Shown here: positions 1,355-34,990 of the stretch, piece after piece | Numbering within the stretch: the stretch's first letter is position 1 | How the letters are laid out: each line of letters starts with the position of its first letter | Assembly (NCBI RefSeq): GCF_026151205.1 | Contig: NC_087075.1 | Location: 13,839,628-13,903,627 of the forward strand | Length of the DNA: 64,000 nucleotides | Origin: Bolinopsis microptera | Lineage: Eukaryota > Ctenophora > Tentaculata > Lobata > Bolinopsidae | Direction of reading: 5' to 3' | The notes under the pieces: model-generated | Told to the model about the DNA's origin: nothing | The model's database searches: none | The model's input: only the letters and a program-made list of their open reading frames with translations | Translations under genes and position numbers: made by a program

Positions 1355-2163
1355 GGGGGGGGGGTTCACCCTGATTTTTTTGTGAAACTTAGTTTCGAGA
1401 TAGCAGTTGACCAACAAACTAGGACCGTGACCGAACTTTTGAGGGGGTCCCGGACCCCAACCGCCAAACGGTGCCTGCGGGGCAGCCACGCCCATATTTG
1501 ATATATTTGAGCCAAATTTTTTTAAAGGCCTAACTCAAAATTCCATATTAAAACTTAAGGTCGAAATGCGATTCTACGTTGATTCTGAAAATTTCATGTA
1601 AAAATATTGAAACCCTATTGAGTTCTATTGTTTTGAACGAATCAGTTTCGCAATATCGCGAACTGAGATATGGCGATTTTGTCATTTTTTGCAATTAATT
1701 GAACACAGAATCCACAGTTAGGTAGATTTGAGCTGATAATCATAGAGAATCTGTAGTATAGGCTTATCTTCCATATAAAGTTGGGTCATTCAAAAATATT
1801 GATATTTGACCAATTATGGGCCCAAAATCGATCAAATTTGGTGCGTATGCCCAAATATGGTCTTATGGTTTTTGGCTCATAACTCAGTCATTTTGTCCAA
1901 TCTTGATGAAAATTCATATACGAGTTCAAGGGACCACTAGCTACAAGTAGAGCACCTAAAATCTGGGTTTTGGGCATGTTCAGGGGTATTTGGCTAAATT
2001 GGGGCCCTAATTTGGACCAAATATGGGCGTGGCTGCCCCGCGGGCACCGTTTGGCGGTTGGGGGTCCGGACCCCCTCAAAAGTTCGGTCACCGGTCCTAG
2101 TTTGTTGGTCAACTGCTATCTCGAAACCAAGTTTCACAAAAAATTCAGGGTGAACCCCCAGCC
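1355..2163. mobile_element. 809-bp non-autonomous element with ~146-bp terminal inverted repeats, TTAA flanks
   Basis: The left end (1355-1500) and right end (about 2018-2163) are long inverted repeats with only scattered differences. They share GGGGGTTCACCCTGA at the tip, then GATAGCAGTTGACCAACAAA and CCGCCAAACGGTGCC further in. The tetranucleotide TTAA abuts both ends (1351-1354 and 2164-2167). A TTAA target is typical of piggyBac and Kolobok elements; assignment to either is inference. No transposase is encoded: short frames inside are shadows of the repeats. The interior (1500-2010) is AT-rich. Confidence 0.75.
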
Positions 2164-2167
2164 TTAA

Positions 2168-4805: not shown

Positions 4806-7026
4806 CGGGGTTGTGACCATGTCCGTCATGTCCTCCTATGTCCCTGTCCTATTCATGGAATTCTATAGCACAACGGACGTGTTTATCTTAGGACATTGGC
4901 GACAACGGCACTGGTACATTGGCGGACTCGGACGGACATTGGCGGAACTCGGACGGAACATTGGCGACCCAGACCCGGCGCACATTGCGGACTTGGACTG
5001 GACATTGGTGGACATTACGGACATTGGGTGGATCTTTAGGCGGACAAACCAAATTGAGGACATGAAGAGTACTGAAGATTATGAAGAAGTACTGAGGCGG
5101 ATTGCTGAGAAGGATGGCTGAGGAAGGATGACTGCGAGGAGATGTCTGAGGAGGTATGACTGAGAGGAGGAGAAGGATCAGGCAAACCCAGCAGGAGCGG
5201 GAGAGGAGGACCCGAAGGATGGACTTAGGGAGGCCCAACAGGACGAGGAGAACTGAGAGGATGACTCAGAGGACTTACATCAGGGACGGAGAGGACTGAG
5301 TAGAGAGTGAAGGGGACAGGAAGGAATGAGGACTCTGAGGAGAGGCTGAAGGAGGATGGCAGCGCTGAGGAGATGTATCTGAGATGAGACTGAGAGTGAG
5401 AGGAGGGAGGAAGAAGAGACGGAAGAGGACAGCGGAGGAGGAGGAGAACGACTGAGCGGAAGGAGAAGGAGGACCGCAGGCGGAGGAGGACCCCAGGAGA
5501 GGAGGACCCAGAGGTAGGACCCAGGAAAAGGCCCCAGGAGAGGCAGGAGGAGGCGACTGGGGAGAGGTACAACTGTTTTGAGGACTAAGATGAGGAAGAC
5601 TGAGACGATTAGGAGATGAGGTATGCAGAGTGATGACAGAGGAGTGTCAGGATTGAAGAGAGGCGCACAGGGAGGACTTCAGTGAAGACCCAAGGAGGAC
5701 CCAGGAGGATGACCACCGGAGGAGGCGACGACTGGAGTGAGTACTGAGGAGGAGGACTGGACGCTACGATGAGCACAGAGAAGGAGGAGGACTAGGCGTA
5801 CTGAGAGGATGGCTGAGGAAGATGGCTGGGGAGTATGGCTGAGGAGGATGACAGAAGGAGAGATGACTGAGAGAAGGGAGGAGAGGAGGACTCAGTAGGA
5901 GGATCCGGGGTAGATGAGAAAAGATAGATGAGGATTAAGAGGAGGAGGAGGACCCAAGGAGGAGACGCGGGACTGAGAGTACAGAGGAGGAAGGCCTGTA
6001 GGAGATGACTGAGAGGGAAGAGGAGGAGGACTCCAGGAGGAGAGGAGACTGAGGGAGGACTGAGAACAAACAGAGGAAGGAGGAGCATGACTGAATGATT
6101 GCATATGAAGAAGAGAGCAGGACCCAGTCACTCCGGGGAGGACTGCGACGAGGTGAAGGATGGAGACTGAGGAGCAAGGATGAGGAGTGATGATAACGGA
6201 GAGGGAGAGAAGGATCAGGAAAGACCCAGGATGAAGAGGAGGAGAGAGGACCGACCGAGAGGGGCGAGGACCAGGGAGGAGGCGACCCAGTGAGGAAAAG
6301 GGGACCCGCGGGAGGACTCAGGAAGGAGGCGAGGAGGACTAGTGGAGGAGTGAGACTGTTGAAGGACTAATTTAGGAGGACTGAGGACGAGGAGGAGGAT
6401 ATGAGGAGACTGACGAGGGAGTAAGGAAAGGACTGATAAGAATGATAGAGGAGATAAGATGGAGGAGGGCAGTGAGCGAGAAGAGGAGACTGAAGGAATG
6501 CGTCAGTCGGCAGAGGGGGGGAATCCGAGGCACTTAAGAGATATTATTATTAATTTAATAATATGATTGGACTCATAATCTATTTAATGAAACATGAATA
6601 CCATGTGAGTGAGGAGGAAGAGTAGGAGGAGGAAGCATCAAATGTTATTTCCAATTATTGTCCGTTTTTGTCCATTTTTGTCGTCCTTATTGTCCGCTCA
6701 AATTTTTCTGTCAGTTGTTTGAAAATAAGGGTACCGAACGGCGACAAAAAACATGAATCCCACACCTATATAACAGCGAAAAATTGAACATTTTATTTAG
6801 CAATTTTGGTGTCCCAATAAAGTCCGCCTATGTCCGCCTATGTCGACCTAAGTCCGTCTACACAACACATGTTCCTCCTATAGTCCGGCCTACATTCCGA
6901 TCTATGTCCGCCTATGTCGCCTAAAGTCCGCCTATGTCCTACCTTATTTGAGGATTCAAAAGAGACGACGCCGACATAGACGGACGTTGCAACAAACCAG
7001 ACCCCCCCCCCCCCCCCCCCCCCCCC
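4806..7026. mobile_element. diverged copy of the G-run/C-run composite element
   Basis: The left end (4806-4835) matches the left tip of the copies at 22817 and 24865 with mismatches: GGGG, then TGTGACCATGTCCGTCATG. The right end (6967-7026) carries GACATAGACGGACGTTG and a long C-run, matching the right tip at 27806 in inverted relation to the left end. The interior is a degraded GAGGAGGAC-type purine array (about 5100-6510). It is followed by the conserved inner module rich in TTTTTGTCC (about 6640-6800) and TCCGCCTATG repeats (6810-6950). ATAAA flanks both sides (4801-4805 and 7028-7032), a possible short target duplication. It is the most diverged of the three copies, through age or poor base quality. 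Confidence 0.7.
5100..6510 (+). repeat. degenerate polypurine array
   Basis: Almost pure purine on the plus strand, built from GAGGAGGA, GACTGAG and GGATGGCTGA words, with many one-base irregularities compared with the array at 23.1-27.5 kb. Serine/leucine/proline-rich frames on the opposite strand are a by-product of the low complexity, not genes. Confidence 0.9.
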
Positions 7027-13244: not shown

Positions 13245-16200
13245 CTGAATGTCATAGTGAGGTATAATTGTAGCGTTTGGGGTTGTCAATTATAATCGCC
13301 ATTTCTGCCATAAACTTTAGAAATATTCCAAATAAATCCTTTTCATTGATTTCCCTTTTCAAATAGCACGTGGAAATGAAACAATCGACTTCATGGGGGG
13401 GGGGGGGGGGGGGGTCCAACCCGATTTTTCCGATCATTCCGATCCCGATTTTGGCCTCATCAACCCTCATATCGGAAAAATCGGGAAAATTTAAATCTTT
13501 CCTCTGAGTTAATGAACAGTTAATAACCATTGACCATGGTCCTTTCTCAAACTTCCAATCCTCAGTTAGATACAAAGAATAGTCTACACAATTTCAAATA
13601 ACATTAAAAGAGATGAAAATCACTTTATTCATCAAAATCTTTATTTATCATGTAACAACTTTTCCATAGTACTGGTAATAGTATCCTTATTACCGCAATT
13701 ATTGGATAATATTTTTGTTTTATGAACCGGGCTACTTAGGAGTAGGAGGAGAAGAAGGAGAAGGAGAAGGAGAAGGAGGACTGAGGAGGAGGAGGAGGAG
13801 GAGGAGGACTGAGGAGGAGGAGAAGGACTGAGGAGGAGGACGAGGAGGAGGAGGAGGAGGACTGACGAGTAGGAGGAGGACTGGGGACTGAGGAGGAGGA
13901 GGACTGGGGAGGAAGAAAATGAGGGCTGAGGAAGAGGACTGAAGAGGATGAGGAGGATGAGGAAGAGGAGGAGGACTGAGGAGTAGCACTGAGGAGGAGG
14001 AGGAGGACTAAGGAGAAGGATGAGGAGGATGAGACTCATGAGGAGGAGGAGGAGGACTGAGGAGGAAGACTAAGGAGGACGAGGACTAAGGACGAGGACT
14101 AGGAGGATGAGGACAAGGGTTAAGGAAGAGGAGGACGACTGAGGAGGAGGACTGATTAGGAGAAGAAGGAAGAGGAGGATGAGGAGGAGGACTAAGGAAG
14201 ATAAGGAGGAGAATGAGGAGGAGCATGAGGAGGACTGAGGAGGAGGAGGATAAGGAGGAGAATGTGGAGGAGGAGGAGGATGACTCAGGAGGAGGACTCA
14301 GGAGGTGGAGGAGGATAAGGAGAAGGACTCATGAGAAGGACTGATGAGGAGGAGGAGGAGGAGGAGGACTCAGGAGGAGGAGGAGGAGGACTGAGGACGG
14401 GGAGGAGGACGACGACGACGAGAGCGAGGACGAGGACTGAGGAAGAGGACTCTGAGGAGGATGAGGAGGAGGAGGAGTAGGACTGAGGAGTAGGACTGAG
14501 GAGTAGGACTGAGGAGGAGGAAGCGGACTAAGGAGGAGAATCAGGAGGATCAGGAGGAGGCTGAGGAGGAAGAGGACTGATGAGGAGGAGAAGGAGGAGC
14601 AGGACTGAGGAGGAAGACTGAGGAGGATGAGGACGAGGACTAAGGACGAGGACTAGGAGGATGATAACGAGGGCTAAAGAAGAGGACTGATTAGGAGGAG
14701 AAGGAAGAGGAAAAGGAGGACTGAGAAGGAGGAGGACTGAGAAGGAGGAGGATAAGGAGGAGAATGAGGAGGAGGAGGAGGAGGAGGATAAGGAGAAGAT
14801 TGAGGAGGAGGAGGATGACTCAGGAGGAGGACTCAGAAGGTGGAGGAGGACTCAGGAGGACTCAGGAGGAGGACTGAAGAGGAGGAGGAGGACTGATGAG
14901 GAGGAGGAGGAGGAGGACTCAGGAGGAGGAAGAGGACGAGGACTAAGGACGACTAGTGTAGGACTGAGGATGAGGACTGATGAGGAGGAGGAGGAGGAGG
15001 AGGAGGAGGAGGACTGGGGGAGGACTGAGGAAGAGGATAAGGAGGAGGAGGACTAAGGATGAGGATGAGGACGAGGACGATTATAAGGAGGACAGAGGAT
15101 GAGGACTGATGAGGAGGAGAAGGAGGAGGATGAGGAGGAGGAGGACTGGGGAGGACTGAGGAGGAAGAGGAGGATGACTGAGGAGGAGGATGAGGAGGAG
15201 GACTCAGGAGGTGGAGGAGGATGAGGAGGAGGACTCAGGAGGAGGAGGACGACTATGAGGAGGACTCAGGAGGACTGATGGGGAGGAGAAGGAGGAGGAG
15301 GATGAGGAGGAGAAATGAGGAGGAGGAGGAGGAGAAGGAGAAGGAGGAGGACTGGGAGTAGGATTGAGGAGGAGGAGGGGACTGAGGAGCAGGGTGAGGA
15401 GGACTGAGGAGAAAGACGAGGACGAGGAGTCAGGAAGAGAACTGAGGAGGAGAAGGACTCAGGAGGAGGAGGAAGACTTAGGAGGAGGAGGACTGATGAG
15501 AAGGAGGAGGAAGACTAGGGAGCCGGGAGGAGGAGGAGGACATGTAAATGTTTTGTCTGTTTTTGTTCGCCCTACTTTTTGTCCGTTTTGAAAATATAGG
15601 GTACGAACGGACACAAAACATGATCCCCCAGCCGGGCCAAGCATGTGTTACGATACAAATGTACTTGACTATACATTTTAGGTGCAGTGTACTAGTGATA
15701 TTATGGTATGTTTAAAGACCGGACCACAAAATATAACCCGGTACCTAGTGTTGTACTAATACATAATAACAAGTAACAGGGATAAAATTAATGAGCAGAA
15801 ACAATCGATCTCACGTCAAAAGGCCAAAGCACTCGGGTCTGGGAGTACATGACAATTCCAACTAGTAGTGAGCATACTAGCGCCCATGCAGTGGAAAAAC
15901 ACATAAAACATATTATTGGAATGTCCAATTGGTTCGTTTTCTCATAACAATATAGCATATGGAGGGGTTCTGGTTGAATTATATCACTTCTGAGAGGTTT
16001 TAGAGATCGATTCTGTAAATTTCTCAATTTTCCGATTTTTCCGATTTTTCCGATTCCGATTTTGGCCTCATCAACCCTCATATCGGACATCGGGTTGGAC
16101 CCCCCCCCCCCCCACTTCATTCAGCACGTACCTTGAATGTGGCCGTCAGAGGTGGCAATGATTCTGAGGTCCGGGCCCAACTTAGTGATTCCATACCCGT

Positions 16201-19200
16201 GCGTTACCAAAACTTCCTGTTCCTCCTTCATACCACTGATGGGAGGTGATATTAAAGATGGAAAATAATCGAACTGAGCTAGGCAAAAATAAGATGGGGT
16301 AGTAAGATCTAGCCGATAGCTGAAATTGTACGGAAATTCTAATATCCATATTATTGACAGCTGAGATTTAGGAAATTTAAATAAATACGTTGATTACGAA
16401 TTTCTTTAAATACCTAAATAACGGAGAAGATATGTCGACACTTATTCTAAACTGTCCATCTTCTCTTGCTTGGGTAGATTCAACGGTGGAACCAAACGCG
16501 GAAGCTATTATCTGAGGAGAAAGGGTGTTAAAATTCTGAAACAGGAGCAATGCTAAATCACTGATAACGATCTACTTACTCTGGTTCGACACGCACTACA
16601 GTTCGACAACTTAGGTTCACCAGATATCACCCCTGTCTAACTTAGGTCCGTGTCGGACTAGAGTCCAGGTAGCGCACTTTAGTTCGACAGAGTTGAACCT
16701 TAGGGTTTGTCGAACTACAGTACATGTGGAACTTGAGTACGTGTACCACTGATAACAGTCACTGGCGTTGAGTGTTCCCACTTTCCGTTCATCTTAAATT
16801 TTCAGATATCGTTGATTCAGTTGATTTAGTGAAATAAAGTATGACCATAATGACCGTTTCTGAATATCGAATGGTACGTGTGCTCATTAGTAATTACCGT
16901 GCGTAAATGCATGTTGTCTAGGTAAAATTGAACCGGTCCGATTCGTATTCGGTATGGTCTAAGTCTAGAGAGTTAATTATGAATCAGGATTTTTGGATCC
17001 AAATGGGAACCATGGAACAAAATGGGGACAAAAGTGAGACATGCGTTTGTAACCCTAATAATAACCCCAAAAATAATGACTCAGGTTCATGGAATAAGCG
17101 GAAATTATCGAAAATGAATGTTCTCCTGAAAATGCTCAGAATGGTTCAAAATTGGTCGAAAAGTGTTCGTGTTGATCCTAGGACCACTCCAGCCAAGTTT
17201 AGGAATCACTGCATGTCAAGAACCGACGTGAGGGTGGTAACAATTTTGTCCCAATAATCCTCCTGAGTAATGTTTTGGAATTTGTCCCCATTTGGTTCCA
17301 AATTTATGGATTCATCTACTCAGTCGACTAGAAACCATCGCGTCCAACTATTAAAACTATAACTGCGCGCGCGTTTACTATATAATACAATGCGCGCTTA
17401 ATTTTTATGATTTCTAAACGGATTTTCATACATTATCGTCGCCGCGTGTACCAGAACATGACCTTTTTTAGCGCAACCGCCCAACCATTAATTCTAATTT
17501 TCAATCGGAAGTGGAACAAATTGGAGCTCCACCGCAATTAGATTCTGAATAAACGTCGAAACTTCATTACATCAAGGTGTAAGAAAATTGACAAAGTCAA
17601 TGCTAATTTGGTTGTCAGTGTTTAAGACGGGATCCGAGCTATGACTCATTCAGTCACATACTAGATGGTCTTCCCAATGTCATCACCAAGAAAGGCTAGA
17701 AAGCAATGAAATACAAATTCCTAATTACTGCCCCAGGTTGCTCAACCGCAGCTAACATTAAACTCACAATACAAAACCACTAACGAACCTGATTCCCAAA
17801 GCAAATCCCCAGAATGGGAACATCGAGTTTAAATACTGTTTCCTTGAGCTGGTCAGCAGTCTCAGCGGTCCCTACTCCTGGACCTCCACTGATTATTACA
17901 CCCCTGAAATGAGCGGTCATTAAAGTTCCTGACCGATACTTGAGCGGTCGTTAAAGTTCCTGACCGATACTTGAGCGGTCGTTAAAGTTCCTGACCGATA
18001 CTTCTACTCTTCAATAACATTGACTATGTACTTATTGTCTTTAACTGGTATAGCGTTTATATAACCCGACAAGGACTGTTTTACCCATGATGACGTCACA
18101 GAGGTTGTTTTCATGGTATTCCTTGTAATTACTGACCGTGTACGCATTAACCAAGTAAGCGGATAACGAGACAAGGAGATTTGTTCTGCCAATAATATGG
18201 CGTATTTGTTTGTTATCGTTTAAGCACTGTCCAGAGATGTTAATAGGGTTCATTACTGATTTAAATACTTGAACAGTTCTAATGATGCCTTTAAGATGAA
18301 TAAAGGGAGCATGATAGATAATATAGATTCACAGATTTCAGAGTTTTGCTTGAAATGAAAGTGATCGAAACAGCTTTTCGTTATTGTTGCTATTTTCGGC
18401 ATGGCGAAACTGATGTATTATTATAAAGCTTATCGACCACTTCTTTGATAAAATTCGGATGACTTATGTCATTATAAAAATAGAGTTACACAAAATATTT
18501 GTGAATTTACTTCAAAGATTCCGAGTATTGAGATAATGTTTCAAATGTTGAGGTGAGAGGCAGAAATACAGTCTTTACTCCCAGTTCTTCTATTTTTCTG
18601 TTAATTACCTGAAATATTATATTATTATATTTTAGAACAGTAATTATTCGAGATTTTTATAAGAAATTGCTGGCTCCACTTTTCAACCGATATTGAAATA
18701 TTATTAGAATTAGAATTAGAATTTACAGAGCAGTACAATAAGAATAGTAAATAATTTAAAGAAACTTTAAGATAATGTTAAACAGATAAGAAACTACTAT
18801 TATATTCTACACACGTGACGTTCGCATGGTTAGCCAGACAATTACACTACAATAAAGTACAACACAGTGTACAGTATACAGCTTATAATGGTATAAATTC
18901 GTCCGATTGTTTTGAGAAGGATTATTTTTACAACACCTAGATAAAATCCAGCAAAAACTACAAAACATGATATGGAGTGGAAACTGGAAATTATCCAAGT
19001 GGTGGAGCCACTGACATAAAATAGCACAAAACTAATTACAACACTACAAATCTAGTACATTTATTGAGTATTATGTAACGTGATGGAAACGTTTTAAGCG
19101 GGTAAAAGCCAGTCCAAACTCTGGCTCCATAACATAAAGGCCTCATTTTAATTTATATTGAAAAGCCCCAATACATCATATCGTTATGCAGTTCAAAATA

Positions 19201-21360
19201 AACATTTATGCCATGGATTTTTTCATAAAATTACGTATTTGACACCTACATTGAACATCCTAACATTTGATTAACTGGAAATTCGATTGACCGTGCCAAA
19301 GTTATGCTCCAAAATAAAGAACATATTTTAATCATAACCAGGATCAGGATCAACCGAACTTTAATTCATTTCATTTATCTGTTGCCTTTCTCGAAAGAGC
19401 AGACTAACTCCAGGACATACTGTTTAAACAGCTATATAGTGTTTTTCTGAGAAAAATGTGACTTACTTCCTAGAAACTAAACATTCTCTTCGATTAACAG
19501 CTCAATAACTGCTCATATGTTTATGTTTAGTGACTAAAATACATCCGGCGTTTTTTGGAAATCAGCCAATAAATTTTTGTTGAGGCCTAAATGAAAATGT
19601 TGATCACTAACATAAGATTGAAATGTAATTATACATCGATCCTGAAAATTTCATGCAAAGATATCGATCGGCAGTTAAGTTATGTTCTTTTTGGGAAATC
19701 GCTTTCTAAAATTCCGTTTTTAGCATGTTTTGATAGGAAGTAAGTCCAGCTAAAACTTCTTCCTATCAAAGATCATTTATCTCAGAAAAGGAAGTAAGTC
19801 CACGGACTTACTATCTCCGAAATTATTTGGGCAACACTGAACATAATGTTTCTCGACTGGTACTTACTTCGATTTTGAAAATCTTGGACCTCGTTTTTTG
19901 ATGATTTTTTGAGGTCCACGATTTTCAAAATCGAATAAACATTTTTAAAAGGCCTATCTCAAAATTTTGTCTGGCTCATCTCTTTTAAATGATCCCTAGA
20001 ACATATCCTGAAAGTTTCAGGGTGATTGCTTAAAAAATGTAGGAGAATATAGATTTTTAGACTCGATTTTCAGGGCACACGATTTGAGAACCCCATTAGG
20101 ACGAATTTAAGATTTTTTGAAAAACTGCCAAAAATCAACCAAATTATTAGTTAGAATCAAATGTTGTTGTGAAACCAGTATTTCTGGTACCCATAGGGGA
20201 TTTGAAATCAACTTATAAATCAAATGTCAGCAAAAACATCATTCCTCAAAGTATCATAATCAAACCCCGGGCGAGTCCAAAATTAGAAACCTGAGTATTG
20301 ATTCATATGAAATATGAATATCTCTTTAACGATAAAATTTCCTTAACCAGATCTGACTCGCTATGTCTGTTCAGACATGAGAGGCAAGAATGAAATATGT
20401 AAAGTTTATGGACTGATAGCAATTCACCTTTCAAAATTTGCTCCTTCATAAAAAAAATTATCGATTTTTACTTTCCACACACTATTTTCAACTCACCCTG
20501 TACTTCCTTGAGAATTGCATGTAAAAACGTTTCCCACATTAATTATATGTAGCTCATATGTAGAGAATTTTCTACTGAAAATTTTGATACCAATATTGCT
20601 ATATTTCGAAAAATTGGACTTACTTCCTTTTCTGAGAAAACGGCAGTATAAGCCGGCTGTTACGATTGCAATCTTTTAGCAGCCGGCTAAAATGTCATGG
20701 TCACACTTTCATGGTCACACTTTCATGGTCGCAATTTCATGGTTACAATGTCATGGTCACCATATCATGGTCACCATATCATGGTCACCATATCATGGTC
20801 ACCATGTCATGGTCACAATGTTATGGTCCCAATGTTGTGGTCACAATGTTATGGTCACAATTTCATGGTCACAATACTATGGTACAATATTATGGTCACA
20901 ATATCATAGTCACAATATCATGGTCACAATATCATGGTCACATTGTCATGGTCACAATTTCTTGGTCACAATTTCTTGGTCACAATGCAATTACTCAAAC
21001 AGATTATGGCAGATTAGATGGAAATGTTTGATAAAACTCATCACATGACATGAAACACATTCATTTTGGTTAAAACACAAAGAGTAGTAAGATAAAATAT
21101 TATGGTAACTGGAGGGTAAATACTTTAACTTTAGGATCTGCATATTTTGTAGTGGTAAAGTGCAACTGGACAATAATTTAATATCAAAGTCTAATTTTAA
21201 ACAGCAATTTGTCGCAAGATATTCTTAACAGTCATATATAGAACGTCTTGTAAATGATAAAGCAATTCAGGTATAAAATTTCTACCCAACTTACTTTTCC
21301 ATATTGTGCGCCAGCGTCTATTATAAGAATTTGAGCATCACTCACATTGTTCATCTTCAT
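13104..21360 (-). CDS. GMPS: GMP synthase (glutamine-hydrolysing), N-terminal amidotransferase part
   Basis: Six exons on the minus strand: 21360-21295, 18608-18511, 17903-17789, 16511-16414, 16235-16132 and 13244-13104. Each has GT/AG junctions and phases that match. The product (about 207 residues) reads through the class I glutamine amidotransferase domain. It has an ILIIDAGAQYGK start, an oxyanion-type SGGPG, the nucleophile Cys in GICFG, LVTHGYGITKL, and the His-Pro-Glu of YGVQFHPEVDL. In this family the domain releases ammonia from glutamine for amination of XMP to GMP by the C-terminal ATP-pyrophosphatase. That half is absent from the visible sequence, whereas animal enzymes are near 690 residues. 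A frameshift falls in the last exon. The large introns hold a composite transposon, a GGAAGTAAGTCC element, a 14-bp minisatellite and a 31-bp repeat. Confidence 0.88.
13388..13394. repeat. target-site duplication ACTTCAT (left)
   Basis: ACTTCAT directly precedes the G-run of the composite element. The same heptamer follows its C-run at 16114-16120. Confidence 0.8.
13737..15540 (+). repeat. 1.8-kb polypurine array
   Basis: Near-uninterrupted purine strand made of GAGGAGGAG, GGACTGAGGA and GGACTCAGGA words in irregular order. There is local higher-order repetition, for example around 14480-14515 and 15180-15250. Such tracts can form triplex (H-DNA) structures; that is general knowledge, not shown here. 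Confidence 0.93.
15650..16080. other. right inner part of the composite element
   Basis: AT-rich unique sequence between the polypurine array module and the right terminal CCGAT hairpin of the element in the GMPS intron. No gene. Confidence 0.5.
16132..16235 (-). CDS. GMPS: GMPS coding exon 5
   Basis: 104 bp, acceptor CCCATCAG, donor GTACGT. It encodes GMKEEQEVLVTHGYGITKL and then an IIATSDGHIQ strand, matching VLLTHGD.. of the family with Tyr in place of the usual Asp. The right end of a composite transposon lies only 18 intronic bases past the donor. Confidence 0.9.
16414..16511 (-). CDS. GMPS: GMPS coding exon 4
   Basis: 98 bp, acceptor CTCCTCAG, donor GTATTT. It encodes IIASAFGSTVESTQAREDGQ and then FRISVDISSPLF, equivalent to the FGGTV...REDG...ISVD segment of the family. 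It ends in phase 2, giving a Ser codon across the junction with exon 5. Confidence 0.88.
16512..17788 (-). other. GMPS intron 3
   Basis: Intronic DNA between exons 3 and 4. At 16580-16740 there are repeated GTTCGACA, AGTTCGACA and GTCGAACT words in both orientations. A 109-codon plus-strand frame (16928-17257) has no recognisable features and is not called. Confidence 0.5.
17789..17903 (-). CDS. GMPS: GMPS coding exon 3 (catalytic Cys)
   Basis: 115 bp, encoding GVIISGGPGVGTAE and PILGICFGNQ. The Cys of GICFG is the amidotransferase nucleophile. The usual residue order is GICYGMQ, so Phe and Asn are substitutions beside the active site. Donor GTTCGT is weak. The acceptor (CATTTCAG) sits against a 31-bp tandem repeat. 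Confidence 0.9.
17908..18005. repeat. three-copy 31-bp tandem repeat
   Basis: Three consecutive units containing TGAGCGGTCGTTAAAGTTCC followed by TGACCGATACT, nearly identical, within 5 bp of the acceptor of GMPS exon 3. The repeat covers where the polypyrimidine tract of that intron would lie. Confidence 0.9.
18511..18608 (-). CDS. GMPS: GMPS coding exon 2
   Basis: 98 bp, acceptor TTTCAG, donor GTAAAT. It encodes VINRKIEELGVKTVFLPL and then a Ser/Thr-rich helix, matching the region after the first strand of the amidotransferase fold. It ends in phase 2, so the split Lys codon is completed by the first base of exon 3. Confidence 0.87.
18609..19420 (-). other. GMPS intron 1, distal part
   Basis: AT-rich intronic DNA with no exon signal. 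It includes a repeat copy (about 19078-19290) that is homologous to 21884-22110; both contain GTTTTAAGCGGG- or TTCTTTAAGCGGG-like starts and ACATAAAGG. Confidence 0.45.
19440..20645. mobile_element. possible AT-rich foldback element with GGAAGTAAGTCC motifs
   Basis: The left side (about 19441) has GTTTTTCTGAGAAAAATG then ACTTACTTCC. The right side (about 20612-20645) has GGACTTACTTCCTTTTCTGA, an inverted relation with mismatches. TATA flanks both ends. Further GGAAGTAAGTCC copies lie at about 19736 and 19792. The phrase CTGAAAATTTCATG recurs here and in the element at 1355-2163. Boundaries and class are uncertain. Confidence 0.4.
20691..20990. repeat. 14-bp minisatellite (TCATGGTCACAATG type)
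   Basis: About 21 units of TCATGGTCACCATA / TCATGGTCACAATG. It is preceded at 20651-20690 by a palindrome with AGCCGGCTGTTACG and GCAGCCGGCT arms. The His/Ser/Trp-rich frames over it come from the repeat and are not genes. Confidence 0.93.
21295..21360 (-). CDS. GMPS: GMPS coding exon 1
   Basis: 22 codons, MKMNNVSDAQILIIDAGAQYGK truncated here only by the splice donor; phase 0. The ATG is preceded directly by TTTTTTCTATAG, an acceptor-like sequence, so a non-coding 5' exon probably lies upstream. The donor is GTAAGT. A second in-frame Met at codon 3 could also initiate. DAGAQYGK is the beta-strand start typical of animal GMP synthases. Confidence 0.88.
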
Positions 21361-21540
21361 CTATAGAAAAAAGTTTGTTAAAATAATGAGGGTATTAAAA
21401 TAAAATGTTAGATCATTCAAATTAAAAGTTAGTTGAATACTATGATGTGGAAATGGCTATAAATGTATGGGTATATGGCACACAAATTAATGACAGGCAT
21501 CACAAAATGAAAGTCCGCATAAACCATATTGTAGCTCACA

Positions 21541-21808
21541 ACAACAACAACAACAAGGGCAGGTCTGGCCCAGTGTTGGGATAGCCTGAGGTGCTCATCT
21601 CCTTTTCAGTAACGTAAGCCACCATGTGCCAATGCACTATACTAGTATTCTAGCTGCAGCTCAGGGGGTAAGTCTAACGAGCGAGGGAGTGTATATCACC
21701 AGCCTAAGCTGTGCCGATTAGCAGTTTGGTGACTTGCTGACTTGATTTGAACCCGAGGCCTTCTTCATGGAAGGCAATTGTGATACCTACCACTACACTA
21801 CCCACCCT
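21541..21808 (-). repeat. tRNA-derived SINE
   Basis: Read on the minus strand, it starts with a tRNA-like head (GGTGGGTAGTGTAGTGGTAG as box A and GGGTTCAAATC as box B, with a CCTTC/GAAGG anticodon-type stem). A unique body follows, then a (TTG)n tail, seen as (CAA)n at 21537-21556. This head-body-tail layout is that of a tRNA-derived SINE. The parent tRNA was not identified. Confidence 0.75.
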
Positions 21809-22055
21809 AAGGTTCCCTATATAGCTATTGAAAAGTATTTTTGTATGTATACAAAAATACTAAAGATAATAAATGTATTATACGCGATGGAGGTTCTTTA
21901 AGCGGGCAATTCCAGTCCAAACCCTGGAAACATGACATAAAGGATTTGTTTTACTTGTTGCATGAAAAGCACTAATACAGTTACATAATTGAAAAAATTA
22001 TGGCCCATTGTTGAGGGCAAAATATTCATAGCTATTATAGCTATAGATTTTATAA

Positions 22056-24234
22056 AATTCTCTGGACAAGGGATTTCAATTCGTGGTAATTGGTAATTGT
22101 CCGATTTGCTCACCTAAGTCATAAAAGCGAGCACAAATGACCTAGCTGAGACCTACAAAAAGTTCTTTAAATGCAATTATATAAGAAACCAAAGAAAATC
22201 CTGCTTTTTAACCCCCTTAATTTTAACCCCCTTAATTTGACATTGATTTTCATTTTCAATTTAAGTTGAAATGGTTGTTCAGAGCGCGAGCAGCACCTAC
22301 CTATTGTGGGAACTACAAGCTAAGTTAGCTTGTGCTTAACTAATAATACTTCAGTGATATAATCAGCAAAGCACGATACAGTATAGTATGGAATTGAGGA
22401 TGGAACATAATGAAAAATGTATGCCACTGGGAAGCTAACACCAGAATCAACTCTCCTGTGACTGTCTGCATATTAACTTACTACACGATAGTCGAGTCTA
22501 AATTCATTCCTTCTACAAATTTCTAGTTTTTATAGATACAATGCAATCGCATGTTTACTAATCTTAATCAACTTAACAAGAATAAATTCGAGTGAGGATT
22601 AGATACTGGATAACATTGACGAAAGGAGCAAAAAGTCCTTTCCTCGCTACTCAAGAAGAAGCACAGACACCAAAGTTATGTCTCTCTTACACGGCCATGT
22701 CTGTCATCTTTATAGCCTTCCATGCAAGGGTGGCCAGCAAAGTAAAACAAAATTTAGTAAAACAAAATTAAAATTTTATTGCCATTACAATGAATAATGA
22801 TATCATAACAAATATAGGGGGGGGGTGTCATGTCCGTCTATGTCCGTCTATGTCCTGTCCTTTTTGGATTCTATGAGACAACGGACGTGTTTTTTGGGAC
22901 ATTGGCGGACACGGACGGACATTGGCGGACTCGGACGGACATTGGCGGACTCGGACGGACATTGGCGGACCCGGACGGACATTGGCGGACTTGGATGGAC
23001 ATTGGTGGACATTAGCGGACATTGGTGGACATTAGCGGCAAAAATTTTGAGGACTGAAGAGTACTGAAGAGTACTGAAGAGTACTGAGGAGGATGGCTGA
23101 GAAGGATGGCTGAGGAGGATGGCTGAGGAGGATGACTGAGGAGGATGACTGAGGAGGATGACTGAGAGGGAGGAGAAGGATCAGGAAGACCCAGGAGGAG
23201 GAGGACCCAGAAGGAGGACCTAAGAGGAGGAGGAGGAGAACTGAGGAGGATGACTCAGGAGGAGGAGGACTCAGGAGGAGGACTGAGGAGGACTGAGGAG
23301 GACTGAGAAGGAGGAGGACTGAGGAGGATGGCTGAGGAGGATGGCTGAGGAGGATGACTGAGAGGGAGGAGGAGGAGGAAGAGGAGGAAGAGGACTGAGG
23401 AGGAGGAGGAGAAGGACTGAGGAGGAGAAGGAGGACCCAGGAGGAGGACCCAGGAGGAGGAGGACCCAGGAGGAGGACCCAGGAAAAGGCCCCAGGAGGA
23501 GGAGGAGGACTGGGGAGGAGGAGAACTGTTGAGGACTGATGAGGAGGACTGAGGACGAGGAGGAGGAGTAGGAGGAGGACTGAGGAGGGGAGGAGGAAGA
23601 GGACTGGGGAGGATCAGGAAGACCCAGGAGGACCCAGGAGGAGGAGGAGGAGGACCCAGGAGGAGGAGGATGACTGAGGAGGACTGAGGAGGAGGACTGA
23701 CGATGACTGAGAAAGAGGAGGACTGAGGAGTACTGAGGAGGATGGCTGAGGAGGATGGCTGGGGAGGATGGCTGGGGAGGATGGCTGAGGAGGATGACTG
23801 AGGAGGATGACTGAGAGGGAGGAGGAGGAGGACTCAGGAGGAGGACTCAGAAGGAAGAGGAGGAGGACTCAGGAGGAGGACTCAGGAGGAGGACTTAGGA
23901 GAAATGAGAAGGAGGACTGAGGAATACTGAGGAGGAGGAGGAGGAGGAGGAGGAGGAGGAGGACTGAATAGGAGGAGGAGGGCAAGGAGGGGGACTGGGA
24001 GAGGACTGGGGAGGAGGAGGACTGATGAGAAGGATGAGGAGGAGGACCCAGGAGGAGGAGGACTGAGGACCGAGGAGGAAGAGGAGGAGGATGAAGAGGA
24101 GGAAGAGGACCCAGGAGGAGGAGGACTGAGGAGGAGGACTGAGGAGGATGGCTGAGGAGGATGACTGAGAGGGAAGAGGAGGAGGAGGAGGAGGAGGACT
24201 CAGGAGGAGGAGGAGGACTGAGGAGGACTGAGGA
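22056..24234. repeat. first copy of a ~2.05-kb tandem duplication
   Basis: 22219-24234 and 24267-26280 are near-identical at a 2048-bp offset. The unit includes unique flank (22219-22810), the element's left end (22817) and about 1.1 kb of purine array. The second copy begins at 24235 with the sequence of 22056 and lacks the stretch equivalent to 22093-22218. This dates the duplication after insertion of the element, or points to an assembly or haplotype artefact. Confidence 0.85.
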
Positions 24235-24236
24235 AA
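23090..24236 (+). repeat. polypurine array, first duplicate
   Basis: GAGGAGGAC / GGATGGCTGA purine array, one of two near-identical copies at a 2048-bp offset. Confidence 0.93.
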
Positions 24237-26280
24237 TTCTCTGGACAAGGGATTTCAATTCGTGGTAATTTTAACCCCCTTAATTTGACATTGATTTTCA
24301 TTTTCAATTTAAGTTGAAATGGTTGTTCAGAGCGCGAGCAGCACCTACCTACTGTGGGAAGCACAAGCTAAGTTAGCTTGCGCTTAACTAATAATACTTC
24401 AGTGATATAATCAGCAAAGAACGATACAGTATAGTAAGAAATTGAGGATGGAACATAATGAAAAATGTATGCCACTGAGAAGCTAACACCAGAATCAACT
24501 CTCCTGTGACTGTCTGCATATTAACTTACTACACGATAGTCGAGTCTAAATTCATTCCTTCTACAAATTTCTAGTTTTTATAGATACAATGCAATCGCAT
24601 GTTTACTAATCTTAATCAACTTAACAAGAATAAATTCGAGTGAGGATTAGATACTGGATAACATTGACGAAAGGAGCAAAAAGTCCTTTCCTCGCTACTC
24701 AAGAAGAAGCACAGACACCAAAGTTATGTCTCTCTTACACGGCCATGTCTGTCATCTTTATAGCCTTCCATGCAAGGGTGGCCAGCAAAGTAAAACAAAA
24801 TTTAGTAAAACAAAATTAAAATTTTATTGCCATTACAATGAATAATGATATCATAACAAATATAGGGGGGGGGTGTCATGTCCGTCTATGTCCGTCTATG
24901 TCCTGTCCTTTTTGGATTCTATGAGACAACGGACGTGTTTTTTGGGACATTGGCGGACACGGACGGACATTGGCGGACTCGGACGGACATTGGCGGACTC
25001 GGACGGACATTGGCGGACCCGGACGGACATTGGCGGACTTGGATGGACATTGGTGGACATTAGCGGACATTGGTGGACATTAGCGGCAAAAATTTTGAGG
25101 ACTGAAGAGTACTGAAGAGTACTGAAGAGTACTGAGGAGGATGGCTGAGAAGGATGGCTGAGGAGGATGGCTGAGGAGGATGACTGAGGAGGATGACTGA
25201 GGAGGATGACTGAGAGGGAGGAGAAGGATCAGGAAGACCCAGGAGGAGGAGGACCCAGAAGGAGGACCTAGGAGGAGGAGGAGGAGAACTGAGGAGGATG
25301 ACTCAGGAGGAGGAGGACTCAGGAGGAGGACTGAGGAGGACTGAGGAGGACTGAGAAGGAGGAGGACTGAGGAGGATGGCTGAGGAGGATGGCTGAGGAG
25401 GATGACTGAGAGGGAGGAGGAGGAGGAAGAGGAGGAAGAGGACTGAGGAGGAGGAGGAGAAGGACTGAGGAGGAGAAGGAGGACCCAGGAGGAGGACCCA
25501 GGAGGAGGAGGACCCAGGAGGAGGACCCAGGAAAAGGCCCCAGGAGGAGGAGGAGGACTGGGGAGGAGGAGAACTGTTGAGGACTGATGAGGAGGACTGA
25601 GGACGAGGAGGAGGAGTAGGAGGAGGACTGAGGAGGGGAGGAGGAAGAGGACTGGGGAGGATCAGGAAGACCCAGGAGGACCCAGGAGGAGGAGGAGGAG
25701 GACCCAGGAGGAGGAGGATGACTGAGGAGGGCTGAGGAAGAGGACTGACGATGACTGAGAAAGAGGAGGACTGAGGAGTACTGAGGAGGATGGCTGAGGA
25801 GGATGGCTGGGGAGGATGGCTGGGGAGGATGGCTGAGGAGGATGACTGAGGAGGATGACTGAGAGGGAGGAGGAGGAGGACTCAGGAGGAGGACTCAGAA
25901 GGAAGAGGAGGAGGACTCAGGAGGAGGACTCAGGAGGAGGACTTAGGAGAAATGAGAAGGAGGACTGAGGAATACTGAGGAGGAGGAGGAGGAGGAGGAC
26001 TGAATAGGAGGAGGAGGGCAAGGAGGGGGACTGGGAGAGGACTGGGGAGGAGGAGGACTGATGAGAAGGATGAGGAGGAGGACCCAGGAGGAGGAGGACT
26101 GAGGACCGAGGAGGAAGAGGAGGAGGATGAAGAGGAGGAAGAGGACCCAGGAGGAGGAGGACTGAGGAGGAGGACTGAGGAGGATGGCTGAGGAGGATGA
26201 CTGAGAGGGAAGAGGAGGAGGAGGAGGAGGAGGACTCAGGAGGAGGAGGAGGACTGAGGAGGACTGAGGAGGACTGAGAA
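24235..26280. repeat. second copy of the ~2.05-kb tandem duplication
   Basis: Repeats 22219-24234 with very few substitutions, for example a shortened (GAG)n at about 25980. The junction at 24235 joins purine array directly to AAATTCTCTGGACAAGG. Confidence 0.85.
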
Positions 26281-27490
26281 GGAGGAGGAGGAGGAGGAGG
26301 ACTGAATAGGAGGAGGAGGAGGGGGACTGGGGGAGGACTGAGGAGGAGGATGGAGGACTCAGGAGAAGGATGAGGAGGAGGACTGAGGAGGACTGAGGAG
26401 GAAGAGGAGGAGGATGAAGAGGAGGAGGAGGACCCAGGAGGAGGACCCAGGAGGAGGACTCAGGAGGAGGAGGAGGACTGGGGAGGAGAAGGACTGTTGA
26501 GGACTGATGAGGAGGACTGTGGACGAGGAGGAGGAGTAGGAGGAGGACTGAGGAGGGGAGGAGGAAGAGGACTGAGGAAGATCAGGAAGACCCAGGAGGA
26601 GGAGGAGGACCCAGGAGGAGGAGGATGACTGAGGAGGACTGAGGAGGAGGACTGACGATGACTGAGAAGGAGGAGGACTGAGGAGTACTGAGGAGGATGG
26701 CTGAGGAGGATGGCTGGGGAGGATGGCTGAGGAGGATGATTGAGGAGGATGACTGAGAGGGAGGAGGAGGACTCAGGAGGTGGACTCAGAAGGAAGAGGA
26801 GGAGGACTCAGGAGGAGGACTCAGGAGGAGGACTTAGGAGAAATGAGAAGGAGGACTGAGGAGAACTGAGGAGGAGGAGGAAGAGGATGACTGAATAGGA
26901 GGAGGACAAGGAGGGGGACTGGGAGAGGACTGGGGAGGAGGAGGACTGATGAGAAGGATGAGGAGGAGGACCCAGGAGGAGGAGGACTGAGGACCGAGGA
27001 TGAAGAGGAGGAGGAGGACCCAGGAGGAGGAGGACTGAGGAGGAGGACTGAGGAGGACTGAGGAGGATGGCTGAGGAGGATGACTGAGAGGGAAGAGGAG
27101 GAGGAGGAGGAGGAGGAGGACTCAGGAGGAGGAGGAGGACTGAGAAGGAGGAGGAGGAGGAGGAGGACTGAATAGGAGGAGGAGGAGGGGGACTGGGGGA
27201 GGACTGAGGAGGAAGATGGAGGACTGAGGAGAAGGATGAGGAGGAGGACTGAGGAGGACTGAGGACTGAGGAGGAAGAGGAGGAGGATTAAGAGGAGGAG
27301 GAGGACCCAGGAGGAGGACCCAGGAGGAGGACTCAGGAGGAGGAGGAGGACTGGGGAGGAGAAGGACTGTTGAGGACTGATGAGGAGGACTGTGGACGAG
27401 GAGGAGGAGTAGGAGGAGGACTGAGGAGGGGAGGAGGAAGAGGACTGAGGAAGATCAGGAAGACCCAGGGGGAGGAGGAGGAAGAGTAGG
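25130..27490 (+). repeat. polypurine array, second duplicate and extension
   Basis: The array continues past the end of the 2048-bp duplicate. The extension at 26280-27490 repeats itself at roughly 870 bp, for example a GATGGAGGACT-type block at about 26350 and 27210. Confidence 0.93.
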
Positions 27491-27806
27491 AGGAGAAAGC
27501 ATCTAAATGTTATTTCCATTTTTGTCCGTTTTTGTCCATTTTTGTCCGTTTATGTCCGCTCTATTTTTTGTCCGTTTTGAAAATATAGGGTACCGAACGG
27601 ACAAAAAACATGATCCCCTATAACAGCAAAAATTGAACGTTTTATTTAGCAATTTAGGTGTCCATTAATGTCCGCCTATGTCCTTCTATGTCCTTCTATG
27701 TCCGCCTATGTCCGCCTATGTCCGTCTATGTCCGCCTATGTCCTGTCCTTTTTGGATTCTATGAGACAAGCGGACATAGACGGACGTGACACCCCCCCCC
27801 CCCCCC

Positions 27807-28020
27807 AATATAAGTAGACATCCGATAATAAACTTGTTACATCCAGTACAACCCAAGATGTCAGCCGACGGGACTCACAAAAATAAAGAAAGCTAGCATG
27901 TTCATTGTTCATAGTTTTTCTAACGAGCATACTTAGGCTGTACGGAAATAGCTTTAATTCTGCTTTAATTTCATACAGAGAAACACTACAAGCGCACTCC
28001 ACTAGTGACCAACAAGTGAC
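27807..28020. repeat. flanking segment X, left copy
   Basis: A 214-bp segment following the composite element's right tip, ending CCAACAAGTGAC. It recurs with the same length at 33702-33915 behind a second copy of the same tip. The left copy is interrupted one base later by the copia LTR; the right copy continues into ATACCGTTGCG. Confidence 0.92.
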
Positions 28021-28021
28021 A

Positions 28022-28171
28022 TGTTAACCTTGTGTGTTGGTACCAGTAACTACACCGTTGTTATATGAAAGGTAGTAATGAATCGTATCAAGTCATACAG
28101 TATCAAGTCATACGCTTATATACAGCAAAGCCCTGGGAAATACATAGTTAATGATATAAAGCAACTTAACA
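28022..28171 (-). repeat. copia 3' LTR (150 bp)
   Basis: Bounded by TGTTAACC and CTTAACA, and identical by eye to the other LTR at 33377-33526. It is the 3' LTR because the coding strand is minus. Terminal TGTTAA/TTAACA inverted repeat. Confidence 0.93.
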
Positions 28172-28185
28172 ATCTTACCCCTTTC
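28172..28185 (-). promoter_or_regulatory. polypurine tract of the copia element
   Basis: On the minus strand GAAAGGGGTAAGAT abuts the 3' LTR. This is the expected position and composition for the plus-strand DNA primer. Confidence 0.75.
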
Positions 28186-33376: not shown

Positions 33377-33526
33377 TGTTAACCTTGTGTGTTGGTACCA
33401 GTAACTACACCGTTGTTATATGAAAGGTAGTAATGAATCGTATCAAGTCATACAGTATCAAGTCATACGCTTATATACAGCAAAGCCCTGGGAAATACAT
33501 AGTTAATGATATAAAGCAACTTAACA
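33377..33526 (-). repeat. copia 5' LTR (150 bp)
   Basis: Identical by eye to 28022-28171. It is very short for a copia LTR. It contains TATATAC and a duplicated ATCAAGTCATAC word. Promoter function is inferred from position. Confidence 0.93.
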
Positions 33527-33701
33527 ATGTCCGCCTATGTCCTTCTATGTCCGCCTATGTCCTTCTATGTCCGCCTATGTCCTTCTATGTCCGTCTATGT
33601 CCGCCTATGTCCGCCTATGTCCGCCTATGTCCTGTCCTTTTTGGATTCTATGAGACAAGCGGACATAGACGGACGTGACACCCCCCCCCCCCCCCCCCCC
33701 C
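33527..33701. repeat. second copy of the composite element's right end
   Basis: Ten-base TGTCCGCCTA/TGTCCTTCTA units, then TCCTGTCCTTTTTGGATTCT, GGACATAGACGGACGTGACA and a C-run of 21, homologous to 27661-27806. Only the right end is present. Confidence 0.88.
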
Positions 33702-33915
33702 AATATAAGTAGACATCCGATAATAAACTTGTCACATCCAGTACAACCCAAGATGTCAGCCGACGGGACTCACAAAAATAAAGAAAGCTAGCATGTTCAT
33801 TGTTCATAGTTTTTCTAACGAGCATACTTAGGCTGTACGGAAATAGCTTTAATTCTGCTTTAATTTCATACAGAGAAACACTACAAGCGCACTCCACTAG
33901 TGACCAACAAGTGAC
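33702..33915. repeat. flanking segment X, right copy
   Basis: The 214-bp duplicate of 27807-28020, here continuing through GTGACATACCG without the copia insertion. It therefore looks like the empty target of the same insertion. Confidence 0.9.
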
Positions 33916-34990
33916 ATACCGTTGCGTCTTGGTGCCCCCCCCCCCCCCCCTTTGTTACAACACTGTGGTCAACCATGCTGGTCTATTTTAAGAGATGATA
34001 GTGATGACAACATCAATGATGTGAAACAAGAAATTAAATTTAAGCACATTTTACAGAATCAACAAACTTATAACAATGTAGATATAATGCTCATTTGGTG
34101 TATGACCTTCTGTCCTTGACTGCTAATTGGGTTGTAAACGGACAGTCAACTAACAGGGAAAGGAATGTGCATGCCTGAAAACTTTTGTATCATTGCCTTC
34201 CGCACTCTAGTACAAATTGCCATTGGTGAACTATCATAAAGATGATTATTGTAGTGCTCTCCATGCCCATCTCCTTGTGACATTACATCCCCTTCAGCCT
34301 CTACTACCCACTCTACTGCCTCATCTTCTGGACATCATTATCTTTAGTTCAGTTAAAAATTCTCAACACTCACCTCCAAGTCGAGTACTCTCGACGCACT
34401 TGGCCCATATGCCTTGCAAACTTACAGCAGTTCCTAATACTCACCAAAGAAATAGGAAAGACAAAATTTGTATTTACCACAAAACAATCAATACATAATG
34501 TTATATTCATAAATTAATTCGCGCACACAGCCACACATTGTTGAGAAATCCTTAGGTGCGGCTGTAAGCGCCGCGCACAGGATAAATTCAATTGTTAACT
34601 TACAATTTCATGTCACATTTAAAGATGGTACCTTTCTAGTCAATTGTAGGAGAAGAAAAAGCTTAACAACAATTTAGGTGGCTTGTTTCGATTTCACTAG
34701 GTCCTAGTATTTATCTTTATTGTTTTCAAGTTTTAAGAGAACTCTCCTTAAATTATTTTAATACAGTCACTCAGATAAGTTTTATACCAGGACACTTCAA
34801 CAAAGACACACATTCTGCCCACAAGAAGGGGCCATAATTGTTTCAATTATTTAACTGTACAGAATTGTTATTATCATAACAACTCAATAGTCCAAGTCAC
34901 CATACCTGTTGTACATTTTTGAATAAGGGAATAACTTGTAAGTATTAAAAATTGTTGCTTTAATTGATTTAAATAGAAACTTTTTGTTTT
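33916..34990. other. AT-rich spacer
   Basis: A C-run at about 33936-33951 is followed by unique AT-rich DNA. No coding features are supported. Confidence 0.45.

What the first reader, a model, noticed from the sequence alone, without database searches (positions are those of the whole stretch)
13395..27806. A composite element family with G-run/C-run ends and kilobase polypurine cargo
Three elements (4806-7026, 13395-16113, 24865-27806) share one plan: G-run, short inverted terminal module, GAGGAGGAC-type array, a conserved TTTTTGTCC/GGACAAAAAACATGAT module, inverted terminal module, C-run. Two have perfect 6- or 7-bp target duplications (AATATA, ACTTCAT), so they moved as units even though most of their length is satellite-like. 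I know of no standard family with G-runs as the outermost bases and simple-sequence cargo. Duplications of 6-7 bp are unusual; IS3EU and Dada families use that size. Non-autonomous status is inferred from the lack of any transposase.
Basis: partly seen in the sequence, partly recalled or inferred. Interest (0 to 1): 0.75.

Follow-up and report, generated by a model that had tools for sequence, protein, structure and literature searches.

The report
Jumping satellite DNA with G-run ends
These are real transposons without genes of their own: each begins with a run of G, ends with a run of C and mostly carries kilobases of simple repeat, and hundreds of copies have inserted across what is probably a comb-jelly genome, usually leaving a 6- or 7-letter duplication of the target.

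Summary
The window lies in a 264.65 Mb assembly (probably the ctenophore Bolinopsis microptera, inferred). There are two families. A (24865-27806, and a degenerate copy 4807-7026) has 317 exact left and 402 exact right ends genome-wide; B (13395-16113) has 209 exact ends. Of 73 A left ends tested, 67 pair with an inverted right end at 1.2-6.5 kb. Target duplications: 6 bp in 17 of 20 A copies, mostly 7 bp in B (7 of 7 have one). Like-for-like control: 15 of 18 true flank pairs match, 6 of 306 mismatched. Three of eight tested insertions have an empty duplicate site with one target copy and no G or C run, so the runs arrive with the element. In both families a 58-65 bp block lies in the same direction at both ends; in B a 91-97 bp mini-element made of that block also sits alone with its own duplication. 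So B, and by analogy A, looks like a composite delimited by the outer ends of two directly repeated minis. The families share a ~79-bp core and polypurine-type cargo. No transposase was found; IS3EU, Dada, Polinton, hAT and Mutator each fail a tested feature.

The parts
24859..24864 (.). target site duplication AATATA, left copy (family A)
24865..24873 (+). terminal G-run (9) of family A element
   Evidence: absent from the empty sites of other family A copies, L032 and L004
24874..24940 (+). left terminal module A: TGTCATGTCCGTCTATGTCC.. then the block ..TGTCCTTTTTGGATTCTATGAGACAA, in the same orientation as in the right module
   Evidence: 58-column direct alignment to the right module; 30-nt inverted match of outer ends, 97%
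24945..25139 (+). short arrays (20-bp GGACATTGGCGGACNCGGAC, then 10-bp GAGTACTGAA)
25140..27495 (+). polypurine minisatellite cargo (GAGGAGGACTGAG-type)
   Evidence: unit order shared with A copy L010, score 1168 vs shuffled max 694
27561..27618 (+). core hairpin module TTTTTTGTCCGTT..AACGGACAAAAAACATGATCCCC
   Evidence: 79-column alignment to family B core; DNA fold z -4.23
27668..27791 (+). right array (ATGTCCGCCT)n and right terminal module ending ..CGGACGTGACA
27792..27806 (+). terminal C-run (15)
27807..27812 (.). target site duplication AATATA, right copy
13388..13394 (.). target site duplication ACTTCAT, left copy (family B)
13395..13414 (+). terminal G-run (20) of family B element
13415..13485 (+). 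left terminal module B: TCCAACCCGAT.. plus block CCGATTTTGGCCTCATCAACCCTCATATCGGA; aligns with mini-B from its left end
13738..15540 (+). polypurine minisatellite cargo
15571..15628 (+). core hairpin module shared with family A
   Evidence: DNA fold z -1.78
16026..16099 (+). right terminal module B: (TTTTTCCGAT)n plus block, ending ..ATCGGGTTGGA; aligns with mini-B to its right end
16100..16113 (+). terminal C-run (14)
16114..16120 (.). target site duplication ACTTCAT, right copy
4807..7026 (+). degenerate family A copy (73-84% to the third element in blast pieces, no perfect duplication)
22817..24234 (+). duplicate of the left half of the 24865 element, with its left flank (98.9% over 2.0 kb)
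33527..33701 (+). right-end family A copy with the same right flank as 27807 onward (94.5%)

Best explanation
Two families of non-autonomous terminal-inverted-repeat DNA transposons built on one plan, moved in trans by one or two unidentified transposases that insert a DNA copy with a 6-bp (A) or mostly 7-bp (B) staggered target cut. The G/C homopolymers are the outermost bases of the inserted unit. The long elements are composites: two copies of a ~90-bp miniature element in the same direction bracket a passenger (polypurine array plus core hairpin), and the outer left end of one copy and the outer right end of the other act as the ends of the whole, as in a macrotransposon; the unused inner ends decayed. 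The array, being satellite-like, changed length, and some copies collected LINE insertions. SHOWN: ends that pair, target duplications, runs absent from empty sites, the direct-repeat block, B minis with their own duplications, a shared core with different ends. INFERRED: a trans-acting cut-and-paste transposase, macrotransposon origin (weaker for A, where no mini was found), slippage as the cause of run-length variation.
For: Genome-wide ends: 317 left and 402 right exact A ends, 209 exact B ends; reversed controls 0, 0 and 1. 67 of the 73 A left ends tested (C1 to part of C3) pair with an inverted right end at 1.2-6.5 kb; shifted controls 0-2. 41 inward-facing B pairs among the 100 listed ends, 28 of them 2.6-3.7 kb. 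Duplications: A 17 of 20 and B 7 of 7 complete copies, plus ten pairs drawn at random. Empty sites for L032 (98%), L004 (93%, 8-bp gap away from the junction) and L024 (84%, 12-bp gap away from the junction), 3 of the 8 sites given, each with a single target copy and no run. L002 and L033 sit in short tandem arrays whose neighbouring units show the uninterrupted sequence (by eye). Direct block at both ends, 58 (A) and 65 (B) aligned columns. Mini-B: L064 (97 bp, AACTAAT), L065 (91 bp, ATCTGTT), L106 (6-bp duplication with one mismatch, by eye). L065 and L106 carry a junction variant (AAA) seen in 0 of 13 long right ends (ACA) and 0 of 5 long left blocks (AAAAA), so they are not simple deletion products of the long copies examined. 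Core match A to B, 72 of 79 columns.
Against: No autonomous copy or transposase found. No A mini among 40 scored of 951 candidates, so the composite reading rests on B. The A and B arrays are barely colinear beyond composition (score 854 vs shuffled mean 814, max 833), so common descent of the array across families is weak although the core match is strong. Three of 20 A copies lack a clear duplication. Five of the eight sites gave no empty duplicate (19 of 19 candidates scored). L064 has the long-copy junction (ACA) and could be a recombination product between the two direct blocks.
Confidence: 0.75

Rival explanations
1. The long elements arose by internal duplication and slippage within one mini-element (template switching during gap repair), not by capture of DNA between two neighbouring minis.
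For: The terminal motifs are themselves short tandem repeats (GTCCGCCTAT; TTTTTCCGAT) beside further arrays; no A mini was found.
Against: The block with unique sequence is repeated in direct orientation; B minis exist, two of them with their own junction variant; the core and the ~250-bp units in A-ended L062 do not look like expansions of the ends.
Confidence: 0.35
2. Each copy moved with a short stub of Gs, and the runs grew by slippage after insertion.
For: Run lengths differ widely between copies (A: G 7-30, C 8-50 in 19 copies); the window's degenerate copy has G4, L001 an impure run with 5 pure Gs, and L121 a C6 before an impurity.
Against: The 26 copies have 7 or more Gs and Cs, and three empty sites have no run. 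In A the C-run is at least as long as the G-run in 15 of 19 copies (B 2 of 7), which hints at inherited lengths, but in the four random A pairs it is so in only 2. Growth after insertion is not excluded.
Confidence: 0.3
3. The elements are satellites of the Polinton-type elements in this genome (6-bp duplication, terminal simple repeats suited to protein-primed replication; the latter point is recalled).
For: pPolB matches are present, 13 of 20 in frames of 859-1261 codons without stops; Polintons are reported to make 6-bp duplications (passage).
Against: In the one copy whose ends could be seen the inverted repeat starts AGTAGT.. and shows no G-run or similarity to A or B ends; the second copy sampled gave no inverted repeat between its pieces. 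B makes mostly 7-bp duplications.
Confidence: 0.04
4. Coincidental satellite edges or assembly artefacts.
For: Low-complexity content; local duplications in the window.
Against: Conserved ends, pairing, duplications and empty sites.
Confidence: 0.01

Closest known systems
CMITE families of Acropora corals (PMC2872659; abstract and sections 10 and 14 read)
   Same: Several MITE families with different terminal repeats share a conserved internal region; about 100-bp units; tandem arrays; a new element (CMITE-IN) assembled by a CMITE insertion.
   Different: CMITEs have TTAA duplications and piggyBac-type CC(C/T)T ends and are about 100 bp; here 6/7-bp duplications, 5'-GGGG ends and kilobase cargo.
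Foldback-type elements such as Tetris and Galileo (Tetris: PMC4079207, passages read; Galileo only as cited there)
   Same: No coding capacity, terminal regions with tandem repeats, autonomous partner not found (Tetris), link to satellite arrays.
   Different: Tetris makes 8-10 bp duplications and has a foldback structure with long inverted repeats; here short inverted ends plus a direct-repeat block.
Macrotransposons / composite insertions of maize Ac/Ds (PMC4270019, passages read)
   Same: Termini of two nearby elements move the DNA between them.
   Different: Ac/Ds make 8-bp duplications; here the composite was amplified to a family of about a hundred (B) to a few hundred (A) copies and the inner ends are lost.
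IS3EU/GingerRoot (PMC10045372, passages read)
   Same: 6-bp duplications, as in A.
   Different: Termini TA..TA, in GingerRoot occasionally TG..CA; no G-run; B makes mostly 7 bp.
Dada (PMC3706591, passages read)
   Same: 6-7 bp duplications.
   Different: No terminal inverted repeats; fixed small RNA gene targets.

Membership tests
Non-autonomous TIR DNA transposon (MITE-like) | terminal inverted repeats, fixed-length target duplication, no transposase of its own | tested here: met
   no transposase among the Pfam hits in long interior frames, which were LINE-type domains
Macrotransposon / composite | two copies of a smaller element bracket the cargo in direct orientation | tested here: met
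   direct block at both ends in A and B; three free B minis
Macrotransposon / composite | for family A, the smaller element exists on its own | tested here: not met
   0 of 40 scored of 951 candidates matched a joined A mini over its length
IS3EU/GingerRoot | TA..TA (or TG..CA) termini with 6-bp duplication | tested here: not met
   outermost bases are G/C runs (inside the run A reads TG..CA, B TC..GA); B is mostly 7 bp; definition
IS3EU/GingerRoot | IS3/IS481-like DDE transposase | not tested
   no autonomous copy available
Dada | no TIRs, subterminal inverted repeats only | tested here: not met
   30-nt inverted ends; definition
Dada | insertion at one site in a small RNA gene | tested here: not met
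   the 21 duplications of 5 or more letters are all different strings (L001, read by eye, repeats one of them), 84% AT
Polinton/Maverick | terminal sequence as in this genome's pPolB-bearing elements | tested here: not met
   AGTAGT.. end, no similarity, in the one copy with visible ends
hAT | 8-bp duplication | tested here: not met
   6/7 bp
hAT | hAT transposase between the ends | tested here: not met
   0 of 61 PF05699 hits on C1-C5 lie inside 106 mapped elements (67 A on C1 to part of C3, 39 B on C1-C5); 150 of 366 candidates were scored
Mutator/foldback | 8-10 bp duplication | tested here: not met
   6/7 bp
Mutator/foldback | MULE transposase between the ends | tested here: not met
   0 of 38 PF10551 hits on C1-C5 lie inside the same 106 elements
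CMITE/piggyBac | TTAA duplication | tested here: not met
   list

The most novel reading that the evidence does not exclude
A and B belong to an undescribed DNA transposon superfamily, perhaps peculiar to ctenophores, whose transposase treats a homopolymeric G/C tract of variable length as the outermost end, and which multiplies by assembling composites: miniature elements in direct orientation turn whatever lies between them, here satellite arrays, into new mobile families.
Probability: 0.2. Interest if true: 0.75.

Novelty: new variant of a known kind. Interest (0 to 1): 0.5.

Why it matters
It gives a concrete case, with empty sites, of satellite-like arrays being dispersed by transposition, and of miniature elements apparently combining into larger mobile units with new cargo. 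The G/C-run ends pose a direct question about how a transposase finds its cleavage site in a homopolymer. If the host is a ctenophore, it adds to a group on whose transposons my searches listed little and in which DNA transposon insertions have been linked to promoter loops in Mnemiopsis (PMC12221973, figure legend seen).

Tried and rejected
Transposase inside long copies: Pfam hits in long frames were LINE-type domains, a pentraxin frame in L011, and an LDL-receptor-like frame in L063 whose place relative to the element was not settled; other frames and samples gave nothing above a family cut-off. Polinton partner: rejected on the ends of one copy. hAT and Mutator partners: no hit inside 106 mapped elements; this covers only exact ends listed on C1-C5, and one typed A interval began about 1 kb too early. 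Non-templated C-tailing by a reverse transcriptase was considered because both transferred 3' strands would end in C; not tested. A mini-element: not found. Copies left out of the duplication tally: L006, L007, L008, L014, L017-L021, L023, L027, L028 (left end not found within the stretch fetched) and the window copy 4807-7026 (ends no longer match the search strings); L059-L061 and L063 (left end not found). The ten random pairs came from hand-made lists of 30 of the 67 A pairs and 25 of the 39 long B pairs; copies already fetched and the longest B pairs were left out. Literature: 10 answered searches listed no paper that from its title or abstract describes G-run-ended transposons; 12 papers were opened, as abstract, sections or passages and none in full, so this is weak evidence of absence.
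Full report
WHAT IS THERE. The window is G000:C4:13839628-13903627 of a 264.65 Mb assembly in 232 contigs. Thirteen contigs, C1-C13, are of chromosome size (lengths; C11 only from hit positions), and the published ctenophore Bolinopsis microptera is 265 Mb with 13 chromosomes (PMC11797021, passages); the identification is my inference. The elements at 13395-16113 and 24865-27806 are as described, with perfect duplications ACTTCAT and AATATA; 4807-7026 is a decayed copy without one.

TWO FAMILIES, ONE PLAN. Family A ends in GGGG-TGTCA(T/C)GTCCG.., family B in GGGG-TCCAACCCGAT... Exact 24-mers of the A left and right ends occur 317 and 402 times, and a 15-mer of the B end 209 times; reversed-pattern controls gave 0, 0 and 1. 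Only the first 100 places of each are listed. Of the 73 A left ends I used (C1 to part of C3), 67 pair with an inverted right end at 1.2-6.5 kb, against 0-2 with coordinates shifted. Five further A elements there carry the right-end variant at both ends, 20 right ends stayed unpaired, and a sixth such element was fetched. Of those 20, 19 were sampled about 400 bp inside: 14 polypurine or polypyrimidine, 5 not (L042, L044, L051, L054, L057); the twentieth sample, L058, lay inside an unpaired left end and was polypurine. Of 100 listed B ends, 82 form 41 inward-facing pairs, 28 of them 2.6-3.7 kb; two neighbouring pairs face outward.

TARGET DUPLICATIONS. Of 20 complete A copies, 17 have a 6-bp duplication; in five (L001, L002, L003, L010, L016) one or two letters are hidden in the runs or the run is impure; L005, L034 and L062 lack a clear one. 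Of 7 complete B copies all have one: 7 bp in L026, L064, L065 and the window copy, 7 with a run letter in L024, 6 in L025, 4 letters plus run letters in L022. By one criterion, 15 of 18 true pairs and 6 of 306 mismatched pairs match. Ten pairs drawn at random from hand-made lists of 30 A and 25 B pairs: A 2 exact and 2 with one mismatch of 4; B 4 exact, 1 exact 7-mer behind an impurity in the C-run and 1 imperfect of 6; mismatched 2 of 90. Targets are AT-rich, 84% against 66% in flanks.

EMPTY SITES. Eight insertion sites, flanks joined with one target copy, were searched in the same genome; all 19 candidates were scored. Three sites have an empty duplicate: L032 (C2:3671230-3671480), L004 (C7:1282970-1283190) and L024 (C2:735530-735740). 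Each aligns through the junction with one target copy and no G or C run; L004 and L024 have a gap of 8 and 12 bp elsewhere. The L024 site also has a filled duplicate (C2:788174-791451). L002 and L033 lie in short tandem arrays whose neighbouring units show the uninterrupted sequence (by eye). So, at these sites, the runs came with the insert or grew from it, and the target was not a G-run.

ANATOMY. Beside the inverted outer ends, both families carry one block in the same direction at both ends: 58 aligned columns in A (..TGTCCTGTCCTTTTTGGATTCTATGAGACAA..) and 65 in B (..CCGATTTTGGCCTCATCAACCCTCATATCGG..). In B that block also occurs alone between G-run and C-run as a 91-97 bp mini-element with its own duplication (L064 AACTAAT, L065 ATCTGTT; L106 with one mismatch). 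L065 and L106 share a junction variant absent from 13 long right ends and 5 long left blocks, so they look like a mini lineage rather than fresh deletions; L064 has the long-copy junction and could be a recombinant of the two blocks. Between the blocks lie a polypurine array and a core hairpin. The core matches between A and B in 72 of 79 columns, while the arrays are hardly more colinear than shuffled ones (854 against mean 814, max 833). Within A, unit order is strongly shared (window copy against L010: 1168 against max 694). A-ended L062 carries a different tandem unit of ~250 bp, which forms an array beside the A right end in L061 and recurs beside those of L059 and L060, whose left ends were not found. 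Ends, core and array therefore combine in several ways.

HOW IT WORKS. Most likely these are non-autonomous cut-and-paste transposons moved in trans. The different duplication lengths suggest two transposases or two forms of one. The direct block suggests that long copies are macrotransposons formed from two minis; for A this is by analogy, since no A mini was among the 40 scored of 951 candidates. Run lengths vary (A: G 7-30, C 8-50); C is at least as long as G in 15 of 19 A copies and 2 of 7 B copies, but in 2 of 4 random A pairs, so whether lengths are inherited or grow by slippage is open.

WHAT IT IS NOT. Not IS3EU (TA..TA ends), Dada (no terminal inverted repeats, fixed RNA-gene site), the Polinton whose ends were seen here (AGTAGT), hAT or Mutator (longer duplications; no PF05699 or PF10551 hit inside 106 mapped elements). 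Apart from a pentraxin frame (L011) and an LDL-receptor-like frame (L063), whose places relative to the elements were not settled, the domains recognised in or beside long copies were LINE-type. No transposase was found, so the superfamily is open.

NOVELTY. The kind (non-autonomous TIR elements with internal repeats) is known; the combination of G/C-run ends, family-specific 6/7-bp duplications, a direct-repeat composite build and kilobase polypurine cargo I did not find in ten paper searches, read mostly as listings. I call it a new variant of a known kind; an undescribed superfamily is possible.

Noticed in passing
window 1351-2167: An 809-bp TIR element flanked by TTAA, with 142-bp arms (95%) and G10 at one end, GGCTGGGGG at the other; a different, TTAA-type element that also has a G-run end.
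   Followed up: partly
window 22218-26270, 27668-28173 and 33377-33936: Near-identical local duplications carrying partial family A copies (98.9%, 94.5%, 100%): segmental duplication or an assembly duplication.
   Followed up: partly
L003, L013, L027; samples L088-L089 and L100: LINE-type frames (RVT_1, endonuclease, RNase H) sit inside polypurine arrays, perhaps a favoured landing site; L007 and L014 have such frames next to an array and L006 beside its left module. L097 looked similar by eye but gave no Pfam hit.
   Followed up: partly
G000 C7:6691702/6702995, C9:6595755/6606125, C9:663553/671611: Polinton-type pPolB frames of 1261 codons occur as divergent inverted pairs 8-11 kb apart.
   Followed up: no
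L059-L062: Family A ends with ~250-bp tandem units instead of the polypurine array; only L062 has both ends in view.
   Followed up: partly
L008 (element orientation, about 2590-2606): The core is followed by C16 and then by left-array sequence, a second array and the right end, suggesting a tandem dimer with a C-run at the junction.
   Followed up: no
window 60169-64000: 41-bp satellite at 99% matches running off the window end.
   Followed up: no
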